Position numbers and translations under genes: made by a program
The notes under the pieces: generated by a model
What the model was told of the DNA's origin: nothing
What the model saw: only the letters and a program-made list of their open reading frames with translations
Databases searched by the model: none
Assembly: GCA_030753015.1 (NCBI GenBank)
Contig: JASMDC010000047.1
Span: 1-26,847 of the forward strand
Source: Candidatus Undinarchaeales archaeon
GTDB lineage: Archaea; SpSt-1190; JASMDC01
Reading direction: 5' to 3'
DNA length: 26,847 nucleotides
Part shown: positions 2 through 18,508 of the stretch, piece after piece
Layout: each line of letters begins with the position of its first letter
Numbering within the stretch: the first letter of the stretch is position 1

Positions 2-175
2 AAGAAGGTCGCCCCCAAGAAGGCCCCTCCCAAGAAGGTCGCCCCCAAGAAGGCCCCTCCCAAGAAGGCCCCTTCCAAGAAGGTCGCCCCCAAGAAGACC
101 GCCCCCAAGAAGGTCGCTCCCAAGAAGGTCGCTCCCAAGAAGGCCGTTCCCAAGAAGGCCGTTCCCAAGAAGGCC
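2..175 (+). repeat. 15-bp coding repeat (KKxxP pentapeptides)
   Basis: About 11-12 tandem 15-bp units read AAG AAG then three codons, giving KKVAP, KKAPP, KKTAP and KKAVP. Codon choice is almost constant, so the DNA repeats as well as the protein, which points to expansion by slippage or unequal recombination. The array continues past the left edge. Confidence 0.9.
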
Positions 176-2290
176 GTGGTAGGGGGTGCCCTTGAGCGGA
201 TCCTTGCAAAGTCCGAGGCCGCAGCCGATGCTTCAAGCGTAGAGGTCCGTGCATCTATGGATTCGTCCCTTGAGGACTCCTTCAACCTACTCGAGCGGCG
301 AGTTGAGGCCGCTTCGATGCTTACCAACGATTTGCAATCACGAGAAGAACCTTGGAAGCTCGCGACCTTCGCGCTCGGTGCCATCCTCATCCTTATCGCA
401 TTTGCTATTGCTACAGGGAACCTCATAGGGGGTGGTCCCTCGTCCTCATCGCCCTTCACACAAGAGGACATTGCTGCTTTTACGACCTTTATGCGAAGCA
501 AGGGAGTTCCTGATGCAGATATCGCTCAAGAGCTCACACTCGTGGGTGTAAGCGCGTCGCTCCCACGCTCCACAACCATAGCTGTGCCGAGGGCCACGGT
601 CAAATCTACAAGCCCCACGACCTCGCCAACACCTACAACTACGGCCATACCCGTTGACGAGAAGTGCGAAGCTTTCATTGATCCTCCCCGGAACATCGGA
701 GAGGGTTATCAGCTGACACCACGCACGACGAACGAAGCGTTCTGCTGTGGTGAGGGTCGCGTCCACATCCTTCAGTTCACCTCACCATCGTGCCCATATT
801 GTGATGCGCAGGAGCCTGTCCTCAAGGAGCTCGAGCGTGAGTTGGAAGGTAGGTTGATCCTAGAGACCCTGTGCGTACCCTCTGTTGAGGGTGATCGTGA
901 GCTCTGCGAGCAGCGAGCTGGCAGCAAGGACGCCGTGACTGCGGCTGAACGTCTCAAGACGAAGTACGAGCTCACGGGTACGCCAACCCTCATCATCAAC
1001 TGCAAGTACAAGCGCTCCGGCACCCTCGCTCTGAGCAAGGGCACCGAGATGGAGAAGGAAGAGATTAAGCGTTTGGTTTGCGCTCTGCTCAAGGACAAAC
1101 CAGCAGCATGCACACCCAAGGATGTTCTTCCTGCGCCACCGGTAGAGATTCACGACATGGGCGGACAGTGGTGCGATCCGGCTGGTAAGTTGTCCATCAT
1201 GGCTTTCTATGATTACAAGTGTCCTTACTCGGAGCGTGCACATGCCACGCTCAAGGAGGTTCTTCCTGCCTTCGGGGACTCTATATCGATCGTGTATAGG
1301 AACTTCCCGCTACCCTTCCATACCGGAGCGGAGAAGATCGCCGCGGCCGCGGCCTGTGTTGCCGACCAGGGGCGGTCCGAGGCCTTCGCTGAATGCGCCT
1401 TCAAGGGATACTTCACCGACAATAAGGACACGGCTGCCGATGACACACTGGAGGCCTGTGCAGTCGAAGCGGGCGTTGACATCGATACCTACGCTATGTG
1501 CCTTGAGACCGGACGGGGCAAGTCCGTTGTCGAGGATGATATGAAGGCCGCAGCGGGCTACGGTATCCTCGGAACTCCGTCGCTTGTCATGGGCTGCACT
1601 CATCGTTTCTCCGGCGCCTATCCCGCCGAGTACTTCACCGTTGTGCTATGCCATCTCCTAGGTGATCAAGGTAAGGCTCTGGAACCGTGTATGAAGGTTT
1701 CCACCAAGAACATCGTTGAGAAGGATGTGTTAGGTCCCTACGAACTCCTGCCTGGACGGGACTCGTGCCACGAGCAGGGCAAGATCAAGCTCGAGATGTA
1801 CATCGACTTCATGTGCCCCTATAGCAACCAGGCGTTCGGTACGCTCCAAGCGCTCCGAAAGGAGATGCCGACGATCATCGAGCTCAACTTACGTACGTTC
1901 CCCTTGCCTTTCCATACGAATGCCGAAGTTATTGCTCAGGCAGCGGTCTGCTCCATCCGCCAGGGAGTTGATACTGAGTTCGCTCAGAGCGCGTTCGATG
2001 CGTACTTCAAGGAAAACATGGACACAACCGATCCCAGCGTGCTCAACGATATAGTCAGTGACCTGGGACTCGACATGGGCGAGTACTCCTCGTGTGTGGG
2101 TGATGCTACCATCGGAGATGTCATCCAGGCCGAGGTCGACCTCGCCAAGGAGCTCGCGATCACAGGAACACCAGCATTCATCGTCGACTGCGACAAGAAG
2201 TTGGTGGGCGCCCTACCGAGGGAGATGTTCCTCGACGCCTTCTGTCTGCTGTTCGAGGAGAGCGAGCGTCCTGAGCTCTGCACGGCCTGA
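2..2290 (+). CDS. Membrane-anchored triple thioredoxin/DsbA-like protein with Lys-rich N-terminal repeat tail (5' partial)
   Basis: The frame is open to the left edge, so the start lies outside the window; the GTG at 176 is not a convincing start because repeat and frame continue upstream of it. Counting from base 2, residues 1-58 are KKxxP pentapeptide repeats, about 120-142 are one transmembrane helix, followed by a Pro/Ser/Thr linker and three thioredoxin-fold domains. Active-site motifs are CPYC (about 264), CPYS (about 407) and CPYS (about 605), each followed downstream by a cis-Pro type motif (GTPTL, GTPSL, GTPAF). Domains 2 and 3 look like DsbA/Thioredoxin_4 members. By the positive-inside rule the basic tail should be cytoplasmic and the thioredoxin domains outside, suiting disulfide formation or isomerisation in secreted Cys-containing proteins. 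Only domain 1 keeps both active-site cysteines. The gene converges on the OB-fold gene, 4 nt apart. Family assignment is firm; substrate is unknown. Confidence 0.85.
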   Translation, partial: KKVAPKKAPPKKVAPKKAPPKKAPSKKVAPKKTAPKKVAPKKVAPKKAVPKKAVPKKAVVGGALERILAKSEAAADASSVEVRASMDSSLEDSFNLLERRVEAASMLTNDLQSREEPWKLATFALGAILILIAFAIATGNLIGGGPSSSSPFTQEDIAAFTTFMRSKGVPDADIAQELTLVGVSASLPRSTTIAVPRATVKSTSPTTSPTPTTTAIPVDEKCEAFIDPPRNIGEGYQLTPRTTNEAFCCGEGRVHILQFTSPSCPYCDAQEPVLKELERELEGRLILETLCVPSVEGDRELCEQRAGSKDAVTAAERLKTKYELTGTPTLIINCKYKRSGTLALSKGTEMEKEEIKRLVCALLKDKPAACTPKDVLPAPPVEIHDMGGQWCDPAGKLSIMAFYDYKCPYSERAHATLKEVLPAFGDSISIVYRNFPLPFHTGAEKIAAAAACVADQGRSEAFAECAFKGYFTDNKDTAADDTLEACAVEAGVDIDTYAMCLETGRGKSVVEDDMKAAAGYGILGTPSLVMGCTHRFSGAYPAEYFTVVLCHLLGDQGKALEPCMKVSTKNIVEKDVLGPYELLPGRDSCHEQGKIKLEMYIDFMCPYSNQAFGTLQALRKEMPTIIELNLRTFPLPFHTNAEVIAQAAVCSIRQGVDTEFAQSAFDAYFKENMDTTDPSVLNDIVSDLGLDMGEYSSCVGDATIGDVIQAEVDLAKELAITGTPAFIVDCDKKLVGALPREMFLDAFCLLFEESERPELCTA

Positions 2291-2301
2291 GACGTCAGGC
2301 C
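2284..2301. terminator. Inverted repeat holding both stop codons of a convergent gene pair
   Basis: Perfect 7-bp arms ggcctga (2284-2290) and tcaggcc (2295-2301) surround a 4-nt loop. The TGA stop of the plus-strand gene lies in the left arm and that of the minus-strand gene in the right arm. A hairpin could form in either transcript. There is no clear T-run, so a terminator role is inference. Confidence 0.4.
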
Positions 2302-2933
2302 CGCTTGAGTTCGCAGGCACGCAGTTCGAGGTCGCCCCTACGGATGCGGAGGATCCCTTCCACAACGAGGCGCTCACCTTCCACGGGGTTCTCGTCTATC
2401 GCGAAGACGCGAACCGTTCGGCCTGTATCGTCCACGAGATCGAAGGAAGCATAGGGTTTGTCCCAGCGTGTCGTACCCGTAACGACATTACGTATTATAC
2501 CGGTGAGGCTGAGAGCGGAGCCATCTCGAGAAAGAGCGTCTAAGGCCCGGTCGGTCAGGACGGCGATTGGCTCAACGGCAACAGTGGTACCCTTATCATC
2601 ACCAAGGAGCACGACGGTCTTTCCCTTCCACAGGGCCTCCAACCGGTCCGCCATGAGAACAAGTGATCCCGGGCACCGTGTATCTGCCAAGAGGCGTCCG
2701 GTGACCCGCACGGCGTCATCGGGTTTTATCGCGCAACCTTCGAGGACAAGGGCGCGTAGGCCTCCAGTAGCGTCAGTGAGCTCGACCGATTGGAATAGAG
2801 CGCCCTTTCTGCTCACGCCGCCGGTCACCGTCATCACCGTCCCATCAACGCACACTATGGCACCGATGGGCCCCTTGGCGTCATCGACCATACATGGTAT
2901 GAACGGGCCTTTTACCTTGCGTGTCCTGCCCAT
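2295..2933 (-). CDS. Tandem OB-fold nucleic-acid-binding-like protein
   Basis: About 212 residues with two OB-fold-like segments. The first (roughly residues 20-90) contains SVELTDATG and a VRVTGRLL strand. The second (roughly 135-205) contains SFDLVDDTG, VRVFAID and LVVEGILR. The pattern of a strand, D-x-TG turn and 'V-V-x-G' strand is typical of tRNA_anti/RPA-type OB folds, so single-stranded nucleic acid binding is likely but unproven. No signal peptide is seen. The frame extends up to an ATG at 2957, but the only upstream TATA (centred about 2976) is just 20 nt from it; the ATG at 2933, preceded by GAGG, gives a normal short leader and is preferred. It is divergent from the CARDB-like surface gene and convergent with the thioredoxin gene. 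Confidence 0.7.
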   Translation of the reverse strand: MGRTRKVKGPFIPCMVDDAKGPIGAIVCVDGTVMTVTGGVSRKGALFQSVELTDATGGLRALVLEGCAIKPDDAVRVTGRLLADTRCPGSLVLMADRLEALWKGKTVVLLGDDKGTTVAVEPIAVLTDRALDALSRDGSALSLTGIIRNVVTGTTRWDKPYASFDLVDDTGRTVRVFAIDENPVEGERLVVEGILRIRRGDLELRACELKRA

Positions 2934-2971
2934 CGAATGCGTCCTCGTGTCCTTCATCAGGGAGGAGTATC

Positions 2972-2981
2972 ATTATAAATC
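2972..2981. promoter_or_regulatory. Shared TATA region of a divergent gene pair
   Basis: The sequence cattataaat reads as a TATA box in both directions. On the plus strand its centre is about 33 nt before the ATG at 3010, predicting a leader of a few nucleotides with GAGGT. On the minus strand it predicts a start near 2949, ahead of the ATG at 2933. No other TATA-like sequence is visible in this short spacer. Confidence 0.55.
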
Positions 2982-3009
2982 ATGTCCGCGCATTATCCGA
3001 TAGAGGTAC

Positions 3010-5094
3010 ATGAAGAATTCATTACTCCCAGCGCTCTTCATGGTGTTGCTGCTAGGATCTGCAGACATAATCGTCGATGCCAACTGGGACACACTGGGTG
3101 GTGGTAAGGCGTGGCCAGGCATGACCTCGTTCTTCAAGGTGACTATCAAGAACACGAACCGTGACGAGACACCTCAGGTCAAGGTCCTCATCACGGTCGA
3201 GGACAAGAGCCTCCACCTGTCCGGTCCACTGGACTGGCAGAATCTCCTCTTGAACAGGGCCGAATACACGGTACCCTTCCACCACGGTGCCGAGGTCAAC
3301 ATCGAGAAGAAGACAGAAGCAGTCGAGCTCGTGTACAACGAGGACGAGGTGTACTACTTTGGTATCGAGGCCGATGAGCAGGCCGATCCCCAGACCTACA
3401 AGGTCAAGATCGCCGTTCAGGTGAAGAATCCTGATGGTACGTTATCCATCCCAACATACAAGACCGCTCAGAAGGAGCTTCGGCTCCAAGTGGAGGAGAC
3501 AATCCGGATGACATTCCCGTCCATCGATCTCATCGTCGGGGGAGAGATGAAGTCCGTGAAGATCAGGCTCAACAACCAGGGCAAGGTCCTAGAGAAGCTC
3601 ACGGGTGTCTCCACCACGTTCGAGGTAGTTACTCCTGAATGCGAGGGGAAGATCCTCTTCTGCGACTTCAACGACCGACAGTGCAAGGACAGTGAGTGGG
3701 TGTACAAGCCCAAACGGAAGTCCATCGACGGTTCCATCGAGCAGGACGCTAACATCGAGTACCGTATGCGGGTGGACGACCGTTTCTTCTGTGATGACGA
3801 GGAGATCTGCGGGCAGTGTCAGGTGAGGATGAACGTGACGTTCACCACTGACAAGACCGACTTGCTCCTGAAGAGGAGCTACTCGTCCCTCATCACCGAC
3901 GACAACATGCGTTCTATCAATATCCGGGCAGGCGAGAAACCCAAGACATCTATCAAGATTTCCAGGTTCAGCGAAGTGAAGGGCGAGTACTATTATGAAG
4001 GCCGTATCGACGAGGTCATCGAGGTCCCGATACTGATCAAGAACATCGGCAAGGTGTACGGGCACAAATGCCGGGTACTGTGGGACATAAAACGCCTGGG
4101 TGATCAAGCGGCAGGCGACCTCTTCGAGTTCCAATCGCCCGCCAAAGCGACAGCTGACGGTTCCGACCTGAAGAGCGATGCGGTCGTCATCGAGGAGCTC
4201 AAGCCCAGTGATGAGAAGGAGATCACCTACAAGATCAAGGTAAAGTACGAAAAGGCCGAGCCTGGGCCTTGGCCCATCCTCATGGACGTGTTCTGCCAGG
4301 ATGCCTTCGCCAAAGACGCCAAGGCGCAGAAGGAGGGAGATTGGTCCCGATTCTACTTCAATGTGACCTTCCCGCCGCTTCCAGAGGTCGACCTCATGGT
4401 GGAGACTATCACCACGGAGGTCACGGAGGGGGAGAGCATATCGGTTGACCTCATCGCTTCGAACAGCGGAGAGTATCCTGCCACGAACTGCACCATCTCA
4501 GCGACATGGTCGGGAGAGGGTACGGTGACAGGAGAGCGCTCGATCAAGTTGAAAAAACCCCTGGAGAAAGGCAAGGATTTTACCAAGAGCGTCGAGTACA
4601 AGGTCTCGATACCGGACAGCGCAAAGGATGAATGGAACACCCCGGACGACGATCCGAAGGAGGACCCGCGCATAAACCGACAATCGGTCAGCGCCACAGG
4701 GAAGTTCAACCTCAAATGCAATGATAAGTTCGGTAAGACCGAGGTACGTGGATCGAACTCCTTGAGCAGTAATATCCGCGAACCCGAGGACGAGTTCACG
4801 AAGAGGAAGACGACTACAGAGGACGCTGCGAAGATGAAGATGTATATCCTCGCCGGAGTGGTCGTCGTCGTCGTCATCATTATCGCCGTGGTCATGCTCC
4901 AGCGGCAAAAGAAGCAGAGGTTGCGAGATGCTGGTGGGGGGGGTGCGCCCGGTGCAGCGGCAGGTGCCGCGGCCGGAGGTGCAGGGGCCGCAGCCATGCA
5001 ACAGCAGTACGGATCGTACTACGGGAACCGATATGGTGGAAGCCAGTACTACGGCCAACAGGGCTACCAACAGTACGGCTACCAGCAGCAGTGA
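3010..5094 (+). CDS. Secreted Ig/CARDB-like surface protein, single C-terminal TM and Gln/Tyr/Gly-rich tail
   Basis: 694 residues. An N-terminal signal peptide (hydrophobic about 5-18) is followed by a long extracellular region of beta-rich segments. Several resemble CARDB/NEW3-type adhesion or protease-associated domains, for example 'EVDLMVETITTEVTEGESI...VDLIASNSG' style strands near residues 460-500. Two Cys-rich patches occur near 210-225 and 260-275. A strong transmembrane helix lies at about 611-634, then QRQKKQR as stop-transfer. The last 60 residues are low complexity: Gly/Ala (about 640-664), then Gln/Tyr/Gly-rich to the end, which would be cytoplasmic. The start is chosen at ATG 3010 behind GAGGT and a TATA box. 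Function is unknown; an envelope structural or adhesion role is inferred. A G8 run lies just after the TM segment. Confidence 0.8.
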   Translation: MKNSLLPALFMVLLLGSADIIVDANWDTLGGGKAWPGMTSFFKVTIKNTNRDETPQVKVLITVEDKSLHLSGPLDWQNLLLNRAEYTVPFHHGAEVNIEKKTEAVELVYNEDEVYYFGIEADEQADPQTYKVKIAVQVKNPDGTLSIPTYKTAQKELRLQVEETIRMTFPSIDLIVGGEMKSVKIRLNNQGKVLEKLTGVSTTFEVVTPECEGKILFCDFNDRQCKDSEWVYKPKRKSIDGSIEQDANIEYRMRVDDRFFCDDEEICGQCQVRMNVTFTTDKTDLLLKRSYSSLITDDNMRSINIRAGEKPKTSIKISRFSEVKGEYYYEGRIDEVIEVPILIKNIGKVYGHKCRVLWDIKRLGDQAAGDLFEFQSPAKATADGSDLKSDAVVIEELKPSDEKEITYKIKVKYEKAEPGPWPILMDVFCQDAFAKDAKAQKEGDWSRFYFNVTFPPLPEVDLMVETITTEVTEGESISVDLIASNSGEYPATNCTISATWSGEGTVTGERSIKLKKPLEKGKDFTKSVEYKVSIPDSAKDEWNTPDDDPKEDPRINRQSVSATGKFNLKCNDKFGKTEVRGSNSLSSNIREPEDEFTKRKTTTEDAAKMKMYILAGVVVVVVIIIAVVMLQRQKKQRLRDAGGGGAPGAAAGAAAGGAGAAAMQQQYGSYYGNRYGGSQYYGQQGYQQYGYQQQ

Positions 5095-5139
5095 GCGGAC
5101 TCCACCCGCGACGTCAAGCTTTTATTCCTTGAGCGGGAA

Positions 5140-5484
5140 ATGATTCTTGTGGTAAAGTCCGCCGATCCGGTGGCTCATCTGATCGATACCTATTCCCATG
5201 AGCTCGATGTACAGCTCGAAGGAATGCAGGACGAGCTTAGGGCCCTCAATGCCGAGGTGCGTGATATCCGGGGCCATGCCATCCAAGAGCTCGAACAGCT
5301 ACGTGTCCAGGCGATGCAGGAGCTCAAGGAGATCCTCTCGATCGAGCAGTCGCTCCAGACCATGCCACGCTTCTTCGAGGGCCACATCGCTCAGATCCAC
5401 GGTCAGATGAGAGTTCTGGGCCAGCGGCTCGACGGCCTCGAAGCCTACCGCGAGGTAAAGGACAACCAGGGCTGGTTCTTCTAG
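5140..5484 (+). CDS. Small coiled-coil protein of unknown function
   Basis: 114 residues, not recognised as a known family. Residues 20-75 are Leu/Glu/Gln-rich with heptad spacing (ELDVQLEGM, ALNAEVRDI, ELEQLRVQAM), predicting a long helical coiled coil. The C-terminal third (GQMRVLGQRLDGLEAY) continues the helix and ends in GWFF. No signal peptide or membrane segment is seen. A weak TATA-like tract (cttttatt, about 5119-5126) lies only 18 nt before the ATG at 5140 but 27 nt before an in-frame GTG at 5149, which could be a leaderless start. It follows the surface-protein gene by 45 nt on the same strand. Its stop overlaps the stop of the convergent metallophosphoesterase gene in the palindrome CTAG. 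Confidence 0.65.
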   Translation: MILVVKSADPVAHLIDTYSHELDVQLEGMQDELRALNAEVRDIRGHAIQELEQLRVQAMQELKEILSIEQSLQTMPRFFEGHIAQIHGQMRVLGQRLDGLEAYREVKDNQGWFF

Positions 5485-6362
5485 AGCCCTATCACGGGCC
5501 CGAGTTCGATGATAGATACCTCGGGTCTGCAGTTGAACCGAACCGGGAGGAGCGACGTACCGATCCCACGGGTCACATAGAGCGGAGGGTCACCCGGATA
5601 GAGCCCTGTGTAATAGGGACCGCATCCCTCGGGGAGCCAGATGGGTCCAATGAACGGGAAGTTCACCTGTCCTCCATGAGAATGGCCTGCAAGCACGATG
5701 TCCACGTTGTTTCCTAGTGGAAGGCGATCACGGGCCAACGGCTCATGGCAGACCATCACCGATGTCCCCGATGTGGGTGATGAGGCGAGCGTTCCTGCTA
5801 TGTCGCCTGCGCCCCAGAAGAGGTCGTCGATGCCGTATACCGTGACGGGATGGCCGTCGACCTCGATGCTCCAGGACTCGTTCGCAAGGAGCCGAGCACC
5901 CTGGTCGGAGAACGTCCGCGCAAGGGAAGGACTGCAATTACCGGTCCAGTACTCCCAGTTCCCGTGGACACCGACTACTGCAGGGACGTTACGCAGTTCT
6001 TCCAGCACTGGGACGAGAAGGTCCGTCCTCCCGGCCACCTCCAGATGGTCACCTGCAAGAACAGCGATGTCGGGTCGCTGTTCGTCAACGATTCTCGCTG
6101 CCCTGACGGCCTTCTCTACGTCGTCGTTGATGTGAAGGTCAGCGATAAGAGCAAGGCGGATCCCTTTGTGGTCCGAAGGGATGCTCGGAGTGGCGACTTT
6201 AGTGTTAGTGACCTCAAGCCAGCCCGGCTCAAGAAGGGCGTCAAGACCGAGTGAGGCCGCGACAGCGGAGGCAGCGGCAAGACCAAAGAAATCACGTCGG
6301 TTGACGATGAAATCTTGTCCCGAGGCCTGTGGAGCGCGCTCCGGCACCCCGTTCTCCTTCAT
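5481..6362 (-). CDS. Tat-exported calcineurin-like metallophosphoesterase
   Basis: About 293 residues. Metal-site motifs of the metallophosphatase fold are present in order: DLH (in LIADLHIND), GDH (in LAGDHLE), GNWEY where many relatives have GNHE/GNHD, CHEP, and GHSHGG near the C-terminus. This matches the YaeI/YkuE-like phosphohydrolase group. The N-terminus carries a twin-arginine signal: NRRDFFGL followed by an Ala-rich hydrophobic stretch. It therefore probably folds in the cytoplasm and acts outside. The frame also allows TTG at 6377, but a TATA-like box 27 nt before the ATG at 6362 favours a leaderless start there. The phosphodiesterase gene lies 63 nt upstream on the same strand. Substrate is unknown; phospholipid or phosphodiester cleavage is plausible for this group. 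Confidence 0.85.
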   Translation of the reverse strand: MKENGVPERAPQASGQDFIVNRRDFFGLAAASAVAASLGLDALLEPGWLEVTNTKVATPSIPSDHKGIRLALIADLHINDDVEKAVRAARIVDEQRPDIAVLAGDHLEVAGRTDLLVPVLEELRNVPAVVGVHGNWEYWTGNCSPSLARTFSDQGARLLANESWSIEVDGHPVTVYGIDDLFWGAGDIAGTLASSPTSGTSVMVCHEPLARDRLPLGNNVDIVLAGHSHGGQVNFPFIGPIWLPEGCGPYYTGLYPGDPPLYVTRGIGTSLLPVRFNCRPEVSIIELGPVIGL

Positions 6363-6384
6363 GGTCGAACGAGGCAATGGCAGG

Positions 6385-6394
6385 CTTAAACGTG
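6385..6394 (-). promoter_or_regulatory. Weak TATA box for the metallophosphoesterase gene
   Basis: The minus strand reads CGTTTAAGCC here, centred about 27 nt before the ATG at 6362, the distance expected for a leaderless archaeal transcript. The match to a TATA consensus is weak and read-through from the upstream gene is possible. Confidence 0.35.
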
Positions 6395-6425
6395 TTTCGC
6401 AACGGAAGTGATCGGACCGGGATCG

Positions 6426-9049: not shown

Positions 9050-10789
9050 TCAATCCTTCTCACTGAACACGACCGCGCGGTAGGTCTCCACTATCGTGCT
9101 CCGGTCGCGCCAGCAGTCGGGCAACGAGCCATGCTTCGTGCAGAGCCGAGAGAGGAAGTCCTCCTTGTTCGGGAGCTGCTCCCATACCTGTGGGAGGTAG
9201 GTACTGCGGCCGATGCGTGTGGAGAGCACCACGCCGTGGACGTTCGGCTCGAGTTTTGCAAGAAGGTCTTCTGGCGAGCCGTACTTCAGCACCTCTGGAG
9301 GAGTGAGCACTGATACCTCCACGTCGATAGCCATTAGTTCATTGGTGGCCACCGGATTGAACCTCGGGTCATTGCGGGCTGCGTTCACGGCATTACCGAG
9401 CACGCACTTGATGAGCGAACGCTCGGGAATGATGTCGCCGATGCACCCTCGAAGGTCACCATACATATTGAGCGTGACGAAACACCCTCGATCGGCAGTG
9501 AGGCGCTCTGAGAGAGTGACATCTTCGAAAACCCTTTCTGCCATTGAACCTCCATTGACCGCGTCCTCAACCTTGGCCCGTGCCAGGCGAAGGAGGAAGT
9601 CCTTCTCTTCATTGGTGACAACGTCATCGTCGCTTTCAACGACCTTTCGGGAGATGGCTGCAGAGAGGTAGCCTACCACACTGCTCGTGTCACGGCTGGC
9701 ATCGCCAGAGTCCCCGTGCTTGAGTATGATGGATGTGTCAGCGCCAAGGAGCTTTGAGGCCCTGAGGACCGCAGCACTGGGACCTCCGCCGCACATGCTG
9801 CAGGCCTCGGTACCGAGATCGAGCAGAAGACGCTCGTCATCGAGCTGCTCGATGGATGCCATGCACGTCCGGTCCAAAGCGCCCCCCCGCTCCCGGGAGA
9901 GGTAGTGGGAGAGGTCCGTGGAGGCCACAACGAGCACATCATCCCTACCATCCAGGGTTGCAGCGAGTGCCTTGGCGAGGATGTCCACGTTGCGTTCAGA
10001 ATGCTCGCCCATAACGATGGGGACAAGGAGGAACTCACCGAGCATTGCCTGGAGGAACGGGAGCTGTACCTCGAGCGAGTGCTCCTGGACATGTGCAGCG
10101 GCCTCGTACCCGATGGCCTCGTGATGCCCGGCGATAGCCGCGGCGAGCTCCATATCTATCTCGATGACACCGAGCGGAGTGCGGTATCGTTGGTGGTCAT
10201 TGACGGAGATCCCCGGGAACCAATGACGGTGAGAGGGTGCGACGACCACTACGGATGTATAGCTCTTACCCTCTAGCAATGAATAACCGTATCCCGCGAC
10301 GGAGCCCGAGTAGACATAGCCCGCATGTGGCGAGATGAGCGCGATGAGCTCTCCGGGTACATCGGCGGGAACGGCCGCATCAAGGTGCTTACGTACAGAT
10401 GCACGTAGTTCGTCCGCGTCCCTGGGGTAGAACGTCCCTGCTACGGCTGGCGTGCGGACCGCAGTCGGTTGGAGGATGGTCGGTAAGGGAGCTGCCACGA
10501 TGGCGGTAGGCGATGGTTCCACGCTCGACGTACAGAAGTGCTCGGTGCCACACAGCAGCCCGTCGGGGCAGTGGGCATCCGAACCACAACAGGACCTCCC
10601 TACTTCGCAGCACACTCCGTAACGACAGTTACCGCCGGAACAATCAGATGATGACGAGCAAGACGATCCATCGGTGAGCCCCGTAACTCCATCCTGATGA
10701 AGGCAGCCGGTAACGAGTATAGCGACGGATAGGATGACTATGAGAACGCTCATTCTGCTCGCATGCGCAGGAACGTTCGGCGAGGTCAT
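9050..10789 (-). CDS. Memo-AMMECR1 fusion protein (AmmeMemoRadiSam B-A type) with lipoprotein signal and Cys-rich module
   Basis: 579 residues in four parts. Residues 1-29 form a signal sequence ending in a lipobox (LVTGC). Residues about 42-93 hold ten cysteines in CC and CxxxxC spacings, like a small disulfide-knotted extracellular module. Residues about 113-390 are a Memo domain (AGTFYP, SPHAGYVYSG, EHSLEVQLPFLQ, DLSHY). Residues about 400-577 are an AMMECR1 domain with the LRGCIGD signature near 446. Memo and AMMECR1 are known partners, with a radical SAM protein, in the AmmeMemoRadiSam gene set, and fusions are known. Export as a lipid-anchored, Cys-rich protein is unexpected because these domains are usually treated as cytosolic. 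No radical SAM gene is in the window. An alternative ATG at 10753 still keeps the lipobox. A TATA-like tract 27 nt upstream suits ATG 10789. Confidence 0.88.
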   Translation of the reverse strand: MTSPNVPAHASRMSVLIVILSVAILVTGCLHQDGVTGLTDGSSCSSSSDCSGGNCRYGVCCEVGRSCCGSDAHCPDGLLCGTEHFCTSSVEPSPTAIVAAPLPTILQPTAVRTPAVAGTFYPRDADELRASVRKHLDAAVPADVPGELIALISPHAGYVYSGSVAGYGYSLLEGKSYTSVVVVAPSHRHWFPGISVNDHQRYRTPLGVIEIDMELAAAIAGHHEAIGYEAAAHVQEHSLEVQLPFLQAMLGEFLLVPIVMGEHSERNVDILAKALAATLDGRDDVLVVASTDLSHYLSRERGGALDRTCMASIEQLDDERLLLDLGTEACSMCGGGPSAAVLRASKLLGADTSIILKHGDSGDASRDTSSVVGYLSAAISRKVVESDDDVVTNEEKDFLLRLARAKVEDAVNGGSMAERVFEDVTLSERLTADRGCFVTLNMYGDLRGCIGDIIPERSLIKCVLGNAVNAARNDPRFNPVATNELMAIDVEVSVLTPPEVLKYGSPEDLLAKLEPNVHGVVLSTRIGRSTYLPQVWEQLPNKEDFLSRLCTKHGSLPDCWRDRSTIVETYRAVVFSEKD

Positions 10790-10811: not shown

Positions 10812-10820
10812 GATAAAAGG
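10812..10820 (-). promoter_or_regulatory. TATA-like tract for the Memo-AMMECR1 gene
   Basis: The minus strand reads CCTTTTATC, centred about 27 nt before ATG 10789. The same T-rich tract follows the S10 hairpin, so terminator tail and promoter overlap. Confidence 0.4.
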
Positions 10821-10847: not shown

Positions 10848-11141
10848 TATCTCGATGTTCGCGCCTTCGGGGATGTTCACCCGCATGATATGGCGCATGG
10901 CACGCTCGTCCACATCGATATCGATGATCCGCTTGTGGACGCGCATCTCCCAACGTTCCCAGGTGGCCTTGCCCTCCCCGTCAGGCGACTTTCGCGTGGT
11001 TACGATGAGTCGCTGTGTAGGGAGGGGGATTGGTCCCGCCATGTGGGTTCCAGTTCGCTCGGCAATCTGAGCGATCTGCATGCAGATCTTCTCCAGCTTC
11101 TTTGGATCTGTGCTCTTGAGCTTTATCCTCGCCTTCTGCAT
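10833..11141 (-). CDS. rps10: Ribosomal protein uS10
   Basis: 102 residues, normal for archaeal S10, a 30S head component. The family pattern is clear: QKARIKLKS at the start, PIPLPT followed by a VTTRKSPDG loop, and the [11 protein letters not shown] strand. ATG 11141 is chosen over the in-frame GTG at 11150 because MQKARIKL is the usual N-terminus and GGTGA lies about 10 nt upstream. It sits 30 nt after EF-1A, the standard last gene of this archaeal cluster, so it is co-transcribed with it. Confidence 0.95.
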
Positions 11142-11171
11142 GCTAATCACTCACCCGGGACGTTCGTCCCT

Positions 11172-12434
11172 TTACTTCTCCAAGATGTCGATGACCATTC
11201 CGGCGGCCACTGTGCGGCCCATGTCCCGGATGGCGAAGCGGCCCATGGGCGGGATATCCTTGGCTCGCTCGATGACCATCGGCCTAGTGGGCATTATCTT
11301 GACGAGGGCAGCATCCCCGGTCTTGACGTAATCGGGGTTCTTCTCGACCTCTTGGCCGGTCTTGGGGTCCAGCTTGGAGATGATTTCCTCGATCTTGCAC
11401 GCTGTCTGGGATGTGTGGGCGTGGAAGACAGGCGTGTAGCCCTTCGTCATGACCGTGGGGTGGTCCAGGACGATGATCCTTGCGGAGAACATCTTGGCCA
11501 CGGTTGGCGGGTCGCCATCATGACCGATCACGTCGCCGCGGCGAATATCCTTCTTACCGAGACCGCGGACATTGAACCCGACGTTGTCTCCGGGCTCGGC
11601 CTTGGGCAGCTGCTCGTGGTGCATCTCGATGGTCTTGATCTCGCCCGTCGCGCCGGAGGGGGAGACGACGATCTTATCGCCAGGCTTCATGACGCCGGTC
11701 TCGACGCGGCCTACGGGCACAGTACCAACACCGGTGATGGTGAACACGTCCTGAATGGGAAGACGAAGGGGAAGGCCCGTCGGCTTGTCCGGTGGCACGA
11801 ACTCGTTGATGGCTTCCACGAGGATGGGTCCCTTGTACCAGTCCATGTTCTCGCTCTTCTTCACGACGTTCTCGCCGGTCAGTGAGGAGCCGGGGATGAA
11901 CTTCATCTCGCTCGGCTTGAAGCCGACCATCTGGAGGAACTTGGACAGCTGCTCCTTGACGGCATTGAACTTGGCCTCGTCGTATTTCACGGCATCCATC
12001 TTGTTGACGTAGAGGATCATCTGGCCGATACCGAGTGTCTTGGCCAGGAACATATGCTCCTTGGTCTGCGCCATCACGCCGTCCTTACAGTCGGTCACCA
12101 GCACGGCACAATCGGCCTGGCTGGCACCGGTGATCATGTTCTTGATGAAGTCCCGGTGACCAGGGGCGTCGATGATAGTGTAGTAGTACTTGTCGGTCTC
12201 GAACTTCTCGTGCATGAGGTCGATGGTGAGACCGCGCTCGCGCTCTTCCTTAAGTCGGTCCATGACGAAGGCAAGCTCGAAGGTCTCTTTACCGACCTGC
12301 TTGGCCATTTCCTTGAGCTTCTTCATCTTCTGTTCGCTCACGATCCCGGAATCATAGAGGATCCGGCCGACCGTCGTGGACTTACCATGGTCCACGTGTC
12401 CGATGAACACTAGGTTCATGTGCGGTTTAGCCAT
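11172..12434 (-). CDS. tuf: Translation elongation factor 1-alpha (aEF-1A)
   Basis: 420 residues. This GTPase brings aminoacyl-tRNA to the ribosomal A site. G-motifs are intact: GHVDHGKST (G1), DAPGH (G3), NKMD (G4) and a GSSLTG segment near G5, followed by beta-barrel domains 2 and 3 with [14 protein letters not shown] and the conserved FHAHTSQ region. ATG 12434 (MAKPHMN) is chosen: it follows GGTGAT and matches the family start, while the frame also allows GTG 12443. Unlike the rest of the operon it has its own TATA box, in the 182-nt gap after EF-2, so it can be expressed with S10 above the level of the polymerase genes. Confidence 0.97.
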
Positions 12435-12472
12435 AAGTATCACCTGCTGTGGTGCTGGCCTCTGACTTCAAA

Positions 12473-12480
12473 CTTATAAA
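12473..12480 (-). promoter_or_regulatory. TATA box for EF-1A and S10
   Basis: The minus strand reads TTTATAAG, centred about 42 nt before ATG 12434. The predicted start near 12449 gives a leader of roughly 15 nt containing GGTGAT. This is the clearest internal promoter of the operon. Confidence 0.7.
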
Positions 12481-12484
12481 CATT

Positions 12485-12578
12485 TCCACGAGGGGCCATC
12501 GCGGTCTCCCGTTTCTCGATAGAACTAACAATGCTCTTGCATGGGATCCTCAGAAATCCAAAACAGCTCCCTCGTGGA
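12485..12578. repeat. 10-bp inverted repeat upstream of the EF-1A promoter
   Basis: tccacgaggg (12485-12494) and ccctcgtgga (12569-12578) are perfect reverse complements, 74 nt apart. The first arm lies just upstream of the EF-1A TATA box, the second next to the EF-2 terminator hairpin. It could be an operator pair or part of a read-through RNA structure; function unknown. Confidence 0.4.
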
Positions 12579-12580
12579 GG

Positions 12581-12604
12581 GGACGGGCCTTCCCGCCCCC
12601 GTCC
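12581..12604 (-). terminator. GC-rich hairpin after EF-2
   Basis: Arms ggacggg (12581-12587) and cccgtcc (12598-12604) lie 12 nt beyond the EF-2 stop. The minus-strand sequence after it has only short T-runs (TGTTTT, GATTTC), so termination is possible but may be partial. Confidence 0.4.
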
Positions 12605-12616
12605 ACAATGGATTTT

Positions 12617-14800
12617 CTAATACACGCCGCCAGGGATTTCAGCCTTCATGCCCTTGCGCTTGCGGATCTCCAGGATCGTCTTCTTCTGGAGCTCGCGGGG
12701 CAATCGCTCGAAGTGCGAGTCGATGAGCGACCAGTGACCTCGCCCGGTCGTACCGGAGCGCACGTCGGCTGTGAATCCGAACATGTCGGCCACGGGCATC
12801 TTCGCCCTGATGATCATCATGGTGCCTTCGTGCTCCATGTCCAGGATCTGGCCTCGGCGTCCCTGGATGAGCTTGGAGACCTCACCCATGTAATCCTCCG
12901 GTGTATCGACGCGGATGATCTGACGTGGTTCCAGGAGGTAGGGATCAGCGTTGAGGAATGCGGTCTTGATACCACCACGGACGGCGGGGATGATCTGACC
13001 GGGGCCGCGGTGGATGGCGTCCTCGTGAAGCTTGCAGTCGTAGAGCTTGACCAGCACGTTGATAGCCTTCTCGTTGGCAAGCGGCGGTGTGTCCAACGCC
13101 TCATGGAATCCATCGACGATCAGCTCGATGATCTCGTGGAGGGCCACGACACCGCGCGTGAGGTCGATGAACATCGATCGGTTGTAGATGTCCCTGATCT
13201 TCTTTGCCTCGTCGCGGTCCATGCCCGCGTCCACCAGGGTCTGGGTGAGCTCGTTGTCCTTGGACTTCACTCGCCTCTCCGAGACGAATCCGTCGTCGAT
13301 GGCCTTGAGCACGCTCTCCGACATGGGCTCGACGGTCATGTAGAACTTGTTGTGCTTGTTGGGCGACTTACCCTCGACCTGTGGCGACTGCTTTCCGACA
13401 CCCTCGTGGTATACGACGATCGGGGCTGAGGTCTCGATCTCGATGCCCTGCTCGTTCTTGATGCGGTACTCCCATATGTCCAAGTGGAGCTCGCCCAGTC
13501 CCGAGAGCAGGTGCTCTCCGGTCTCGGGATTGATCTCGACCTTGAGGGTGGGATCCTCTCGGGAGATGCGACGCAGGACCTCGATGAGCTTGGGGAGATC
13601 GCGCATCTGCTTGGCCTCGATGGCCTTTGTGACCACGGGCTCGAAGATGTGCTTGATGGCCTCGAAGGGCTCGGTGTCGTCCTTATCGGTGATGGTTTCG
13701 CCAGAGTTGGACGAGCGAAGGCCCACGATAGCCACGATGTTACCGGCGGGCACTTCATCTACGGGGAAGCGCTGGGGTCCCTTGTACACACCCACCTGCT
13801 GGATGCGCTCGGTCTTGTCAACGCCGAGCAGCTTGACCGTCATACCCTTCTTCAGTACACCGGAGAAGACACGTCCTGTGGACACGTCGCCAGCGTGTGG
13901 ATCATTGGTGATCCGAACTATCACCGCGATAGCGGGGCCCTCAGGATCGCAGGAGAGCAGGTGCTTGCCGTCCGGGGAATCGAGCTCACCAGGCCACAGG
14001 CGCGGGATGCGGAACTGCTGTGCGACAATGGGGTTGGGAAGGTGCCGCACTACCATGTTGAGCACGACGTCGGAGAGCGGCGCCAGCTTGATCAGTTCCT
14101 CCTTCTTATCCTGTTTGTACATGTCCGTGATGTCCGAGAACTTCCGGCCGTAGGCCTGCATGTAGGGGATGGAGAGACCCCAGTTGTGGTAGGCCGAGCC
14201 GAACGCGACTGAACCGTCAGCCACATTGACCGTCCATTCGTCCTTCTTTTCCTTGGGAGCGAAGGCGCGGATGAGATTGTTGACATCCTTGACGATCTTT
14301 ACGATACGCTCCTGGATCTTCTCCGGGGGTAGCTTGAGCTCGTTAACGAGCCGGTCGACCTTGTTGATGAAGAGCACAGGCTTGCACCGGTCCTTCATGG
14401 CCTGTCTGAGCACTGTCTCCGTCTGAGGCATGACCCCCTCCACGGCACAGGCCAGCACGATGGCCCCGTCAACGGCCCGAAGGGCACGTGTGACGTCGCC
14501 ACCAAAGTCCACGTGACCTGGTGTATCGATGAGGTTGATGAGGTAATCCTGCCCTTCGATCGAGTGGACCATTGAGACGCTGGCCGAGTTGATGGTGATG
14601 CCGCGCGCCTGCTCCTGGTCGTCGAAGTCCAAGAAGAGCTGTTGACCCGCCAGTTCCTCGGAGATCATCCCAGCCCCTGCAAGAAGGTTGTCCGAGAACG
14701 TGGTCTTCCCGTGATCGATATGCGCGATCGTGCAGATGTTACGGATCTGCTTCTGCTTCTTCATCAGTTCGAGGATTTGGTCAACCTTATTTTTACCCAT
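12617..14800 (-). CDS. fusA: Translation elongation factor 2 (aEF-2)
   Basis: 727 residues, full length. This GTPase drives ribosomal translocation. Domain G carries AHIDHGKTT (G1), RGITI (G2), DTPGHVDF (G3) and NKVD (G4); domain II follows from about residue 290, and domain IV contains DAIHRGPGQ, whose His is at the site normally modified to diphthamide. ATG 14800 starts the usual MGKNKVDQILELM. It lies 37 nt after S7, with a run of eight Cs on the coding strand in the spacer and no strong Shine-Dalgarno, so translation may differ from its neighbours. A hairpin follows the stop. Confidence 0.97.
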   Translation of the reverse strand: MGKNKVDQILELMKKQKQIRNICTIAHIDHGKTTFSDNLLAGAGMISEELAGQQLFLDFDDQEQARGITINSASVSMVHSIEGQDYLINLIDTPGHVDFGGDVTRALRAVDGAIVLACAVEGVMPQTETVLRQAMKDRCKPVLFINKVDRLVNELKLPPEKIQERIVKIVKDVNNLIRAFAPKEKKDEWTVNVADGSVAFGSAYHNWGLSIPYMQAYGRKFSDITDMYKQDKKEELIKLAPLSDVVLNMVVRHLPNPIVAQQFRIPRLWPGELDSPDGKHLLSCDPEGPAIAVIVRITNDPHAGDVSTGRVFSGVLKKGMTVKLLGVDKTERIQQVGVYKGPQRFPVDEVPAGNIVAIVGLRSSNSGETITDKDDTEPFEAIKHIFEPVVTKAIEAKQMRDLPKLIEVLRRISREDPTLKVEINPETGEHLLSGLGELHLDIWEYRIKNEQGIEIETSAPIVVYHEGVGKQSPQVEGKSPNKHNKFYMTVEPMSESVLKAIDDGFVSERRVKSKDNELTQTLVDAGMDRDEAKKIRDIYNRSMFIDLTRGVVALHEIIELIVDGFHEALDTPPLANEKAINVLVKLYDCKLHEDAIHRGPGQIIPAVRGGIKTAFLNADPYLLEPRQIIRVDTPEDYMGEVSKLIQGRRGQILDMEHEGTMMIIRAKMPVADMFGFTADVRSGTTGRGHWSLIDSHFERLPRELQKKTILEIRKRKGMKAEIPGGVY

Positions 14801-14837
14801 GTCTTATCAACTCGCGGTGGGGGGGGCAGCTGGTCGC

Positions 14838-15866
14838 TTAATGGGAAGCAGACGCCTGCCGCTCGATGTTCTCCTTCTTGTTAATGGAATAGCACTTGAT
14901 GTCGTTGTTGTACGCTGCGATGAGTTCGTTGGCGATGGCTGACGCGAAGCTCCTCTTCTTGCGGATTGTGTTGTTGAAGGAACCATGGCTCAGGAACCTC
15001 AGGGAAATGTCGACGCGCCGCTGGGGCGAGACGTCCACAGGCTGGGGGCGCCTGACGCCACCGAACACAACAGCGGTGATCTCGCACTTAGGCGCAGCAT
15101 GGATCACTGCCTGGACGAGCACCTCAATGGGATTCTTTTTCGTCTTCTTCTCGATGATGAGGAAGGCATCCTCCATGGCGTTCACGACGATGGCGGCCTT
15201 GCCAGCGTTGATACCTGAGGAGAACTTATGGTGCTTGCCCTCGTGGCCAGTGACACCCATAAGCTTGTTGATGAACCTCTCCACGATGTGCTGCTTGCTC
15301 TTCCAGAACTGCTTGCGCGTGTGTCGACCACCTGACTTGGGGATGAGGATTGGTGTGAGGTTGATATAAGGCCGTAGTCCCGGATCCTCGATCAGGATGC
15401 CCGCGCTGTCCCAGCGCCCATAAAGCTTGATGTCCGAAGGGAATGGTGATGCCGGCTGGGGCTCGACGAGCTTGGGTGCTGATGGCTCTTCCATCCTGGG
15501 CACCGCTGCTTTTTCCACAGGTTCGGCCTTCTTCTTCTCTTCTTTTGGTCCAGCTTTCTCCTCGACGACCTCGGGTTCCTCAGCCTTCTTGGCCTTGGTC
15601 TTCTTCTCGACCTTCTCCTCGACGACCTTGGGTTCCTCGGCCTTGGTCTTCTTCTCGACCTTCTCCTCGGCGACCTTGGGTTCCTCGGCCTTGGTCTTCT
15701 TCTCGACCTTCTCCTCGACGGCCTTGGGTTCCTCAGTCTTCTTGGCCTTGGTGTTCTTCTCCGCGGCAGCCTTCGTGGTCTTGGTCGCTGTCTTCTTGGG
15801 CGCCTTGATCGGAGCGGCAGGAGCCTCCTCCGTAGCAGCCTCGATCTCCTTCTTCTTTGCTGGCAT
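14838..15866 (-). CDS. rps7: Ribosomal protein uS7 with about 145-residue charged N-terminal extension
   Basis: 342 residues, against roughly 190-220 for ordinary archaeal S7, a 30S head protein that binds the 3' domain of 16S rRNA. The S7 core begins near residue 145 (IKLYGRWDS) and shows GGRHTRKQF, GKHHKFSSG, and a C-terminal SFASAIANELIAAY helix. The extension is first Lys/Ala/Thr-rich, then repeats of EEPK..VEEKVEKKTKA, then a Pro/Glu-rich linker. ATG 15866 is chosen over GTG 15872 because GGAGGT, inside the last codons of S12, lies 7 nt upstream. The extension reads in one frame without stops and is not a fusion with a recognisable domain. Confidence 0.93.
   Translation of the reverse strand: MPAKKKEIEAATEEAPAAPIKAPKKTATKTTKAAAEKNTKAKKTEEPKAVEEKVEKKTKAEEPKVAEEKVEKKTKAEEPKVVEEKVEKKTKAKKAEEPEVVEEKAGPKEEKKKAEPVEKAAVPRMEEPSAPKLVEPQPASPFPSDIKLYGRWDSAGILIEDPGLRPYINLTPILIPKSGGRHTRKQFWKSKQHIVERFINKLMGVTGHEGKHHKFSSGINAGKAAIVVNAMEDAFLIIEKKTKKNPIEVLVQAVIHAAPKCEITAVVFGGVRRPQPVDVSPQRRVDISLRFLSHGSFNNTIRKKRSFASAIANELIAAYNNDIKCYSINKKENIERQASASH
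15591..15734 (-). repeat. 48-bp coding repeat in the S7 extension
   Basis: Three near-identical 48-bp units start at 15591, 15639 and 15687 (16 residues each, EEPK-VEEKVEKKTKA type). Differences between units are few. Diverged partial copies flank them on both sides. Confidence 0.9.
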
Positions 15867-15871
15867 GCTCA

Positions 15872-16309
15872 CTACCTCCTACCCTTCTCCTTCTTGCCCT
15901 TGAGGATCTCCTTGAGAGCGATATCGTTGACCTTGCAGACCTGCCAGCGCACGCCGGGGATATCGCCCATAGAGCGCCCCATGCGTCCACCGATGCCTTC
16001 TATAGTGACCTCGTCGTGTTCTTCGATCTGGTTGATAGCACCATCGCCGGGAGCGAAGGCCGTGATCTGCTTACCGTTCTTGATGAGCTGAATGCGAACA
16101 CACTTGCGGATGGCCGAGTTCGGTTGCTTGGCCTCGATACCGACCTTCTCGAGCACGATGCCACGAGCCTGGGATGATCCCTTCAGCGGATCCGTTTTCT
16201 CTTTGAGGTTCAAGTGAGAGCGCTTGAACACGCGATTGTACCATCGGTACTTCCTGTGATGTTCCCTGAGCTTCTTTCCTGCGAAAAGACCGCGAGTTTT
16301 ACGTGCCAT
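15872..16309 (-). CDS. rps12: Ribosomal protein uS12
   Basis: 145 residues, normal for archaeal/eukaryotic-type S12, the decoding-centre protein of the 30S subunit. Diagnostic pieces are [12 protein letters not shown] and the GDIPGVRW segment carrying the usual decoding-loop region. ATG 16309 (MARKTRG) is preferred over ATG 16315 because GAGGT sits 9 nt before it; the upstream ATG overlaps the NusA stop as ATGA and may equally be used through coupling. Its final codons contain the Shine-Dalgarno site of S7. Confidence 0.95.
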
Positions 16310-16311
16310 GA

Positions 16312-16752
16312 TCATCTTACCTCGATTAAGTCGAATTCATAATGCCGCCGCATAATTTCCCTGACCTTATTAAGTCTTTCTCCTTGTTTTGCGAGAAGGA
16401 AACGCTTTTCCTTATTTTCAAGAGTGAGATTGACCACTTTCTGACCATCGCTCTTCTCGGATAGATAGACGTTCTGTGGCTTCATGGGACGAAGGAGATT
16501 GCGGATGAACTGGAGTGGATCCTTTGAGTACTCGATGACATCGAGTTCCTTCTCCAGGACCATCTTTACACGTTTGATATTTGCCCCCTTCTTCCCGATT
16601 GCAAGGCCCAAGACCCCTTCGTTCACGATGAATACGAGCTTCGTGCTTTTCCCCTCGAGGAAGCAGTCCTTGACGGTCGCGCCAGTGAGACGCTCGAACA
16701 CGCTGATGTAGCGGATGAGTTCTGCAGTGAGCTTGATCCTTGCACGTGCCAA
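16312..16752 (-). CDS. nusA: Archaeal NusA-like KH-domain protein
   Basis: About 146 residues with two KH domains only; archaeal NusA lacks the bacterial N-terminal and S1 domains. The GxxG-type loop is [14 protein letters not shown] in the first KH and [12 protein letters not shown] in the second. Family knowledge suggests RNA binding in transcription elongation or termination; the exact archaeal role is not settled. The frame opens with TTG at 16758 overlapping the L30e stop, but TTG 16752 has AGGAG about 7 nt upstream and is preferred. A TTG start with strong overlap suggests translation coupled to L30e. Confidence 0.88.
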
Positions 16753-16754
16753 TT

Positions 16755-17030
16755 TCAATCTCCTTTGATGGCGAGGGCGGAGACCGAATAGGGCTTCCTG
16801 CAGAGCTCCCCCAGATCCATGTTATCGCCCGGGTACTCGAAGAGCGGAATCTCGGACAGCTTCGCTGCATGGATGAGGTCGTCCTTACCCTTGCAGTTAT
16901 TCGCAACGACCAACAGTTCGGCCTGGCCGAGCTTCGCAGCTTTCATTGACTTGTCGAGACCCCTGATGATCCGGCCCTCGGCGATGGCTTTCTTGATCGT
17001 ACGTTCGACGTTAGTAGTTGTGAGTTCCAT
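16755..17030 (-). CDS. rpl30e: Ribosomal protein eL30 (L30e)
   Basis: 91 residues, normal for the archaeal L30e family of kink-turn RNA-binding ribosomal proteins. Visible features are GRIIRGLDKSMKAAKLGQAELLVVANNC, split into a helix with the conserved Gly and a hydrophobic strand, and a PLFEYPGDNMDLGELC segment typical of the family. ATG 17030 is preferred over GTG 17036 because GAGGTG and GGAG lie upstream inside the rpoA'' end. It overlaps neither neighbour strongly and sits in its usual place between rpoA'' and nusA. Confidence 0.92.
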   Translation of the reverse strand: MELTTTNVERTIKKAIAEGRIIRGLDKSMKAAKLGQAELLVVANNCKGKDDLIHAAKLSEIPLFEYPGDNMDLGELCRKPYSVSALAIKGD

Positions 17031-17032
17031 TA

Positions 17033-18508
17033 TCACTCCACCTCGCTCAGTGGTCTGGCGAGCAATCGAATGCTCCCCGTTCCGGGGAAGACGGGCTGTC
17101 CAACAGCAACGTTCTCCACGACGCTGCTTAGGCGATCGACATCGCCTCTGATGGCTGCCTTCATGAGGTGCTTCATCGGCACCTCGAAGGATGCGCGCGC
17201 TAGGACGCTTCCCTTCTCTCCCGATACGCCGTACCGCCCGATTGCCTTGATGACACCATCTGAGGTCATTGTGTCGGCAACGAGCATGATGTGGCGGATG
17301 TCCACATTGGTTACACCTGCCTCGGACATTGTATTGGTGATCTCCCTGATGATGCCGTTACGCGCCGCCTCGATGCCCAACACGACAGCGATCTCCTGGA
17401 CGTTATTGGTCGTGGTGCGCTTAACATCAACGCCTTCCATGTTCAAGATCTCTGAGAGGTTCGAACCCTCTGTATAGATGATATACTCGTCCTCTCGCTT
17501 GCGGATCGTGGTGTGAGTGATGTTGGGGATGCCTATCACGTGTGCGTCGGCCAACCGTACTCGTACCGTTTGGAGGTCCTTGATCGTATACTCCTTCTTC
17601 TTGGGCTTGACGATGATCTTGCTCTCTTCGTCCTCCAGAGTAGTGGTGACACCGCGCACGCCTTTCTTGACCGCCTTGAGCACTTCCTTCGGATCTAGCT
17701 TGATGCTCTTGAGCTTCTTCACGTCTAGCTCAGCGACGATCGTGAGGTTGAGAAGGTCGAGACTAATGCCCGTGCAGATATCCTGTACAGCGGTGGACTT
17801 GATCCTTCCTGCGAGGACGATAGATTCGTCCCGGTTGGCACAACTTTTTTCGGTCATGTACACCGTCATGACGGGCGTGCTCGGTTCCTTCCGAGCGTCC
17901 ACGATTTCGATGATGCGCGGAAGACCCAGCGTGACGTTCATCTCCAGGACACCTGCATAGTGGTAGGTACGCATAGTCAGCTGAGTACCCGGTTCCCCGA
18001 TGGACTGTGCCGTGATGGACCCGATGGCCTCGAAAGGGTGGACCTGCATCCGAGCATAGCTCAAGAGCAGGCGCTCGGTCGCGTCCTTTGCCTGGGCAAG
18101 AGTGAGCTTCTCGGACTCGATGATGTCCGCGAATTCCTCTGCGAGCTTTGGTGGCAGGATGCTCCGCACCTCGTCCGTGACGACCTTATCGGCCATAGGA
18201 CGCTTCTTCCTAGGAATCTCCTTCTTCTCTTCGACCACGACGACATCCTTCTTCTTGCTCACCTTCTTTTCGGTGGTCTTCTTGGCCGTCGTCTTCTTGG
18301 CAGCGGCCTTTGTCACCTTCTTTTCGGTGGTCTTCTTGGCCACTGTCTTCTTGGCAGCGACCTTTGTCACCTTCTTTTCGGTGGTCTTCTTGGCCACTGT
18401 CTTCTTGGCAGCGACCTTTGTCACCTTCTTTTCGGTGGTCTTCTTGGCCACTGTCTTCTTGGCAGCGACCTTTGTCACCTTCTTCTCTGCGGTCTTTTTC
18501 TCGGCCAT
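17033..18508 (-). CDS. rpoA2: RNA polymerase subunit A'' with Lys-rich repeat N-terminal extension
   Basis: 491 residues, about 100 longer than typical A''. The subunit is the C-terminal part of the largest polymerase subunit and forms much of the cleft and jaw. The core starts near residue 105 and includes [27 protein letters not shown], a highly conserved segment next to the trigger/bridge region, and the terminal [16 protein letters not shown] segment. Residues 1-100 are almost only K, T, A, V and E in 18-residue repeats. ATG 18508 is chosen: its A is the last base of the rpoA' stop (TGATG) and GAGGTGG lies upstream; an open frame extends to 18562 but would run into rpoA'. Confidence 0.95.
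18260..18475 (-). repeat. 54-bp coding repeat in the RpoA'' extension
   Basis: Four tandem 54-bp units begin at 18260, 18314, 18368 and 18422. The last three appear identical base for base and the first differs at a few sites; a partial copy follows at 18476. Each unit encodes 18 residues of K, T, V, A and E. Confidence 0.93.

What the first reader, a model, noticed from the sequence alone, without database searches (positions are those of the whole stretch)
2..18508. Lys-rich DNA-repeat tails on three unrelated proteins within 27 kb
A thioredoxin-like membrane protein (KKxxP, 15-bp units), ribosomal protein S7 (EEPK-VEEKVEKKTKA, 48-bp units) and RNA polymerase A'' (KKT/VAAKK, 54-bp units) each have a long Lys-rich N-terminal extension. 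Unit length and sequence differ, so they arose separately, yet all are nearly identical at DNA level. If all are real, this lineage repeatedly adds charged tails to cytoplasmic N-termini. The basic tails resemble histone H1-type or HctB-like nucleic-acid-binding tails; a role in binding DNA or RNA, or in tethering ribosome, polymerase and membrane near the nucleoid, is inference.
Basis: partly seen in the sequence, partly recalled or inferred. Interest (0 to 1): 0.7.

Follow-up and report, generated by a model that had tools for sequence, protein, structure and literature searches.

The report
Lysine-rich repeat tails in an archaeon
An uncultured archaeon has long, recently expanded lysine-rich tails on an RNA polymerase subunit, on several ribosomal proteins and on the inner ends of membrane proteins, probably loose electrostatic handles for DNA and RNA of a kind known elsewhere, though one of the three reported tails (ribosomal protein S7) is nearly neutral and does not fit that role.

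Summary
The window (a whole 26.8-kb contig of a 3.85-Mb archaeal MAG) encodes three unrelated proteins with in-frame Lys-rich repeat arrays (15, 48, 54 bp units). Starts are well supported for S7 (Shine-Dalgarno) and RpoA'' (stop-start overlap); the DsbA-like gene's first residues lie on another contig (C71), because the assembly breaks inside the repeat. The genome has more: ribosomal L5 (N-tail), L29 (C-tail, contig break inside it) and about a dozen other K-rich termini; membrane proteins place theirs on the predicted cytosolic side. Six of ten genomes of the class carry such repeats against 5 of 51 other archaea; class relatives carry K-rich or K/E-rich tails on L31e, S3, L22 and an H1-like winged-helix protein. 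The S7 and RpoA'' tails are absent from all orthologues read. Two corrections: S7's tail is K/E balanced (net +5), so it is not an H1-like basic tail; and many tails are C-terminal. Best reading: coding minisatellites repeatedly generate disordered charged tails, kept where cytosolic polycations help non-specific nucleic-acid binding, as in Streptomyces TopA or mycobacterial HupB. Tethering polymerase, ribosome and membrane is untested. Known kind, unusual carriers.

The parts
2..2290 (+). Membrane protein: cytosolic Lys-repeat tail, one TM helix, three DsbA/thioredoxin-like domains; 5' end missing (contig edge)
   Evidence: ORF open at 5' end; Pfam DSBA/Thioredoxin; single TM at residues 120-138 of the visible part; 5' half on contig C71
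1..176 (+). 15-bp unit array coding KK(V/A/T)(A/P/V)(P/S)
   Evidence: same unit only at the end of C71 genome-wide
14838..15866 (-). Ribosomal protein S7 gene with 144-residue N-terminal extension, starting at ATG 15866
   Evidence: start by Shine-Dalgarno
15435..15866 (-). K/E-rich (polyampholyte, net +5) extension of S7
   Evidence: absent from the S7 orthologues read
15591..15734 (-). 48-bp unit array, EEPKxxEEKVEKKTKA x3
   Evidence: units differ pairwise by 4 nonsynonymous and no synonymous changes in all
15875..15879 (-). Shine-Dalgarno GGAGG 8 nt before the S7 ATG, next to the S12 stop
17033..18508 (-). RNA polymerase subunit A'' gene with about 104-residue basic N-terminal extension
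   Evidence: core begins at residue 107 aligned to residue 4 of 4qiw chain C
18197..18508 (-). Basic extension of A'' (39 K of 104, net +31)
   Evidence: weak match to HC2 histone H1-like nucleoprotein (below cut-off)
18259..18496 (-). 54-bp unit array, [18 protein letters not shown] x4.4
18506..18510 (-). Overlapping stop-start TGATG between A' and A''

Best explanation
In-frame coding minisatellites keep arising in this lineage, and at the exposed ends of cytosolic proteins or cytosolic ends of membrane proteins they have grown into long disordered Lys-rich tails. The strongly basic ones (A'', L5, L29, the DsbA-like protein) most likely act as non-specific electrostatic arms that hold nearby nucleic acid: DNA or nascent RNA for polymerase, rRNA for ribosomal proteins. 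The S7 tail, K/E balanced, more likely is a flexible spacer or self-associating segment. Shown: tails are real, in frame, begin at the gene's own start (S7, A''), are recent (near-identical units), lineage-specific at these sites, and recur in the genome and class. Inferred: disorder, nucleic-acid binding and any benefit.
For: Arrays and net charges. Additional basic tails on L5 and L29, and on membrane proteins, all eight examined with the tail at the predicted cytosolic end. Class relatives keep a K-rich L31e C-tail in three genera with diverged sequence but similar composition (43-56% K, net +32 to +46), and a winged-helix protein embedded in H1-like repeats in three genera; composition kept while sequence changes argues for selection on charge. 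In-frame patterns in 6/10 class genomes against 5/51 others. Precedent: Lys repeats raise DNA-complex stability and processivity of Streptomyces TopA and are needed for DNA binding by Ku and HupB tails (review PMC7398561); Lys-rich low-complexity regions are enriched in DNA-binding proteins and occur in archaeal ribosomal proteins (PMC6821194).
Against: No binding, expression or proteomic data. S7's tail has almost no net charge. Some K-tailed proteins have no known nucleic-acid link (JAB here, GH57 in a relative). Repeat units are too similar for a dN/dS test. Array density as such is ordinary (46 per Mb against 40 in other archaeal loci).
Confidence: 0.55

Rival explanations
1. Neutral or nearly neutral repeat growth: minisatellite slippage expands tails that happen to be tolerated at protein ends; composition reflects AAG-rich seed sequences and purging of toxic alternatives, with no function.
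For: Unit identity shows recent growth; tails at these sites are absent from orthologues; in unbiased samples the genome has many other in-frame arrays (54 of 61 periods divisible by 3) with PT, GT, E or Cys-rich content; S7's neutral tail fits.
Against: Lys-rich arrays sit on cytosolic ends and recur on ribosomal proteins across genera with similar composition; a 100-residue tail on polymerase and ribosome is costly (inference).
Confidence: 0.3
2. Tethering network: basic tails on polymerase, ribosomal proteins and the cytosolic ends of membrane proteins bring transcription, translation and membrane together near the nucleoid.
For: The same genome has such tails on A'', L5, L29 and eight membrane proteins facing inward.
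Against: No co-localisation or interaction data; positive charge inside is expected for membrane proteins anyway by the positive-inside rule; the S7 tail is not basic.
Confidence: 0.1
3. Assembly or binning artefact: collapsed repeats or chimeric contigs create the tails.
For: MAG with 5% contamination; contigs break inside two of the arrays (C71/C59, C96/C48).
Against: All arrays stay in frame, with ribosome-binding site or coupled start for S7 and A''; breaks inside repeats are what true long repeats produce, and C96/C48 overlap exactly by 44 bp inside L29; GC is nearly uniform over contigs; independent MAGs of the class show similar tails.
Confidence: 0.03

Closest known systems
Lysine repeats of actinobacterial proteins (Streptomyces TopA and HrdB, HupB/HupS, Ku)
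   Same: degenerate Lys-rich repeats resembling histone H1, GC-rich genome, on several DNA-handling proteins of one organism (PMC7398561)
   Different: there mostly C-terminal, on topoisomerase, sigma factor, HU, Ku; here on RNA polymerase A'', S7, L5, L29 and membrane proteins, in an archaeon, N- and C-terminal; no homology claimed
Low-complexity regions of archaeal ribosomal proteins
   Same: A/E/K-rich segments on ribosomal proteins; 15% of the archaeal ribosomal ones are at least 30% Lys (PMC6821194)
   Different: the archaeal carriers listed with most cases are L12, L10, S24e and S3; here S7, L5, L29, with near-identical DNA units of 45-54 bp
Chlamydial HctB / HC2 (PF07382) and eukaryotic H1 tails
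   Same: Lys/Ala/Thr composition of the A'' and L5 tails; weak HC2 hits
   Different: scores below the family cut-off (23.7 and 17.4 against 40 bits); fused to conserved enzymes and ribosomal proteins instead of free nucleoid proteins
KKE/D disordered domains of eukaryotic snoRNPs
   Same: K/E-mixed disordered tails on RNP proteins, as in S7's tail (PMC11528048)
   Different: eukaryotic, on snoRNP proteins; no relation shown

Membership tests
HC2 / HctB nucleoproteins (PF07382) | score above the Pfam gathering cut-off (40 bits) | tested here: not met
   A'' 23.7 bits, L5 17.4 bits, compositional match only
Ribosomal protein S7 (PF00177) | S7 domain above cut-off, in S12-S7-EF2 operon | tested here: met
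   120.5 bits against 24; S12 upstream and EF-2 downstream by their translations
RNA polymerase subunit A'' | Rpb1 domain 5 and full-length match to archaeal A'' | tested here: met
   PF04998 160 bits; 4qiw_C E 5e-102 over residues 107-483
H1-like basic nucleic-acid-binding tail | strong net positive charge (A'', DsbA-like, L5) | tested here: met
   A'' +31 of 104; DsbA-like and L5 Lys-rich with few acidic residues
H1-like basic nucleic-acid-binding tail | strong net positive charge (S7 tail) | tested here: not met
   net +5 of 144, local charge around zero in the repeat
H1-like basic nucleic-acid-binding tail | binds DNA or RNA | not testable with these tools
   needs biochemistry

The most novel reading that the evidence does not exclude
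This archaeal class uses Lys-rich repeat tails as a general, fast-evolving way to place transcription and translation machinery, and inward-facing membrane proteins, on nucleic acid, with the set of carrier proteins changing between families of the class.
Probability: 0.12. Interest if true: 0.75.

Novelty: new variant of a known kind. Interest (0 to 1): 0.42.

Why it matters
[quoted passage not shown] long, recently expanded charged tails on A'', S7, L5 and L29 of one archaeon give a case where disorder is being added to the information machinery now. If the basic tails raise nucleic-acid residence as Lys repeats do in Streptomyces TopA, the same trick has arisen independently in archaea and on the polymerase itself.

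Tried and rejected
Exact naming of the organism: the first genome-contig scan with EF-2 found nothing; the second, with an S7 alignment, named class relatives (G002 DYHY01000002.1, G003 JAAOXV, G004 JAUXGB, G005 JAAOXU by equal contig lengths; filed at NCBI as Candidatus Altiarchaeota or Micrarchaeum) but not the window genome. Synonymous/nonsynonymous test within arrays: too few differences. The first script for orthologue extension lengths used a wrong S7 motif, redone; an earlier one misread reverse-strand loci, redone. Idea that the genome simply has more minisatellites than others: density is similar. Idea that K tails replace histones: rejected, histones and Alba are present. An AlphaFold job for S7 was submitted but had not finished, so disorder is inferred from composition.

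Full report
Observation. The window is the whole contig C59 of a 3.85-Mb, 117-contig archaeal MAG (completeness 98.9, contamination 5.0). TRF finds three arrays at the stated places with units of 15, 48 and 54 bp. Pfam names the carriers as a thioredoxin/DsbA membrane protein, ribosomal S7 and RNA polymerase A''. The S7 start (ATG 15866) follows a Shine-Dalgarno GGAGG by 8 nt, and the A'' start overlaps the A' stop as TGATG, so these tails are read from the gene's own start. A'' matches Thermococcus A'' (4qiw chain C) from its residue 107 to that chain's residue 4: the tail is a clean addition of about 100 residues.

Is it more than chance? Lys makes up 3.7% of the sampled proteome; 15 in 40 residues has a probability near 6e-12 per position under independence (independence is crude). 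As a matched control, 80 archaeal S7 neighbourhoods (1.25 Mb, 1201 ORFs) hold three ORFs with such a stretch, against three of 18-20 in the window. Two of those three are real tails on other proteins, among them a TFE-alpha-like protein of a Nanoarchaeia MAG (naming by eye).

The missing N-terminus. The first gene is cut by the contig edge. Contig C71 ends in the same 15-bp repeat, after MATDKKKHRIPHGRATRRAALRERAHEDAA, and in the genome-wide pattern search this unit occurs only at these two contig ends. They share no long exact overlap, so the join is inferred by elimination. A second pair of contigs, C96 and C48, overlaps exactly by 44 bp inside another Lys array, the C-terminal tail of ribosomal L29. 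The assembly breaks at these repeats, so copy numbers are unknown.

More tails in the genome. A genome-wide pattern for KK-x3-KK-x3-KK gives hits in about a dozen genes. Reading 1.5 Mb shows Lys-rich ends on L5 (N-terminal, 45-bp units), CpXC, JAB and DUF7121 proteins and on eight membrane proteins. In all eight membrane proteins the tail is on the side predicted to be cytosolic, judged from simple hydropathy and signal-peptide-like N-termini. Extracellular repeats in the same genome are of other kinds, such as PT-rich or Cys-rich. Overall array density is ordinary.

Related genomes. The same class has nine other genomes held (0.6-1.1 Mb). A stricter pattern occurs in frame in 6 of 10 class genomes and in 5 of 51 other archaea, after discarding matches with stop codons by eye. 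Relatives carry Lys-rich C-tails on L31e (three genera), K/E-rich tails on S3 and a Lys-rich tail on L22, and a winged-helix protein surrounded by H1-like Lys repeats in three genera. The L31e tails keep 43-56% Lys while the sequence changes. L31e frames are long in many other archaea too. S7 and A'' tails are absent from every orthologue whose sequence was read: 34 S7 and 37 A'' sequences besides the window's. Frame lengths leave a few open cases elsewhere, such as A'' in G050 (529 aa) and G047 (445 aa), so uniqueness is not claimed.

Charge. The A'' tail has net charge +31 over 104 residues, the DsbA-like tail is similarly basic, but the S7 tail has 36 Lys and 32 Glu, net +5 over 144.

Mechanism. 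The most likely account is repeated in-frame expansion producing disordered tails, with basic tails kept because they add non-specific nucleic-acid affinity. The precedent is good: Lys repeats stabilise the Streptomyces TopA-DNA complex and raise processivity, and occur also on HrdB, Ku and HupS (PMC7398561); Lys-rich low-complexity regions are enriched in DNA-binding proteins and exist on archaeal ribosomal proteins (PMC6821194). A balanced K/E tail like that of S7 resembles in composition the KKE/D domains of snoRNPs (PMC11528048), which is an analogy only. Neutral growth remains a serious rival (0.3). Histones and Alba are encoded, so the tails do not replace them.

Limits. Only part of the genome could be read; an AlphaFold job did not finish; binding and expression are untested; the taxon is known only to class level through relatives filed as Candidatus Altiarchaeota or Micrarchaeum.

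Noticed in passing
L264:4259-4810 -, L266:3800-4504 -, L263:3941-4807 -, L269:3941-4459 - (class relatives): A small winged-helix protein embedded in H1/HctB-like Lys repeats, conserved in four genomes of three genera; a candidate nucleoid protein with linker-histone-like layout.
   Followed up: partly
window 9050-10789 -: Memo and AMMECR1 domains fused in one protein with a lipoprotein-like N-terminus.
   Followed up: no
window 2-2290 +: Three thioredoxin/DsbA-like domains in tandem on one membrane anchor.
   Followed up: no
G000 as a whole: Genome of 3.85 Mb while the class relatives held have 0.6-1.1 Mb; GC is near 0.6 on nearly all contigs sampled, but one contig over 4 kb has 29% GC.
   Followed up: partly
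L254:14701-15786 +: TFE-alpha-like protein of a Nanoarchaeia MAG with a long Lys-rich C-terminal tail.
   Followed up: no
G000:C40:70651-70848 - and G000:C11:41831-42019 -: L31e in an open frame of 214 aa and a histone-fold match in an open frame of 259 aa: possible further tails, sequence not read.
   Followed up: no
L169:2684-3136 -: Small two-TM protein with a 48-bp Glu-rich array followed by a KKKAAP tail.
   Followed up: no
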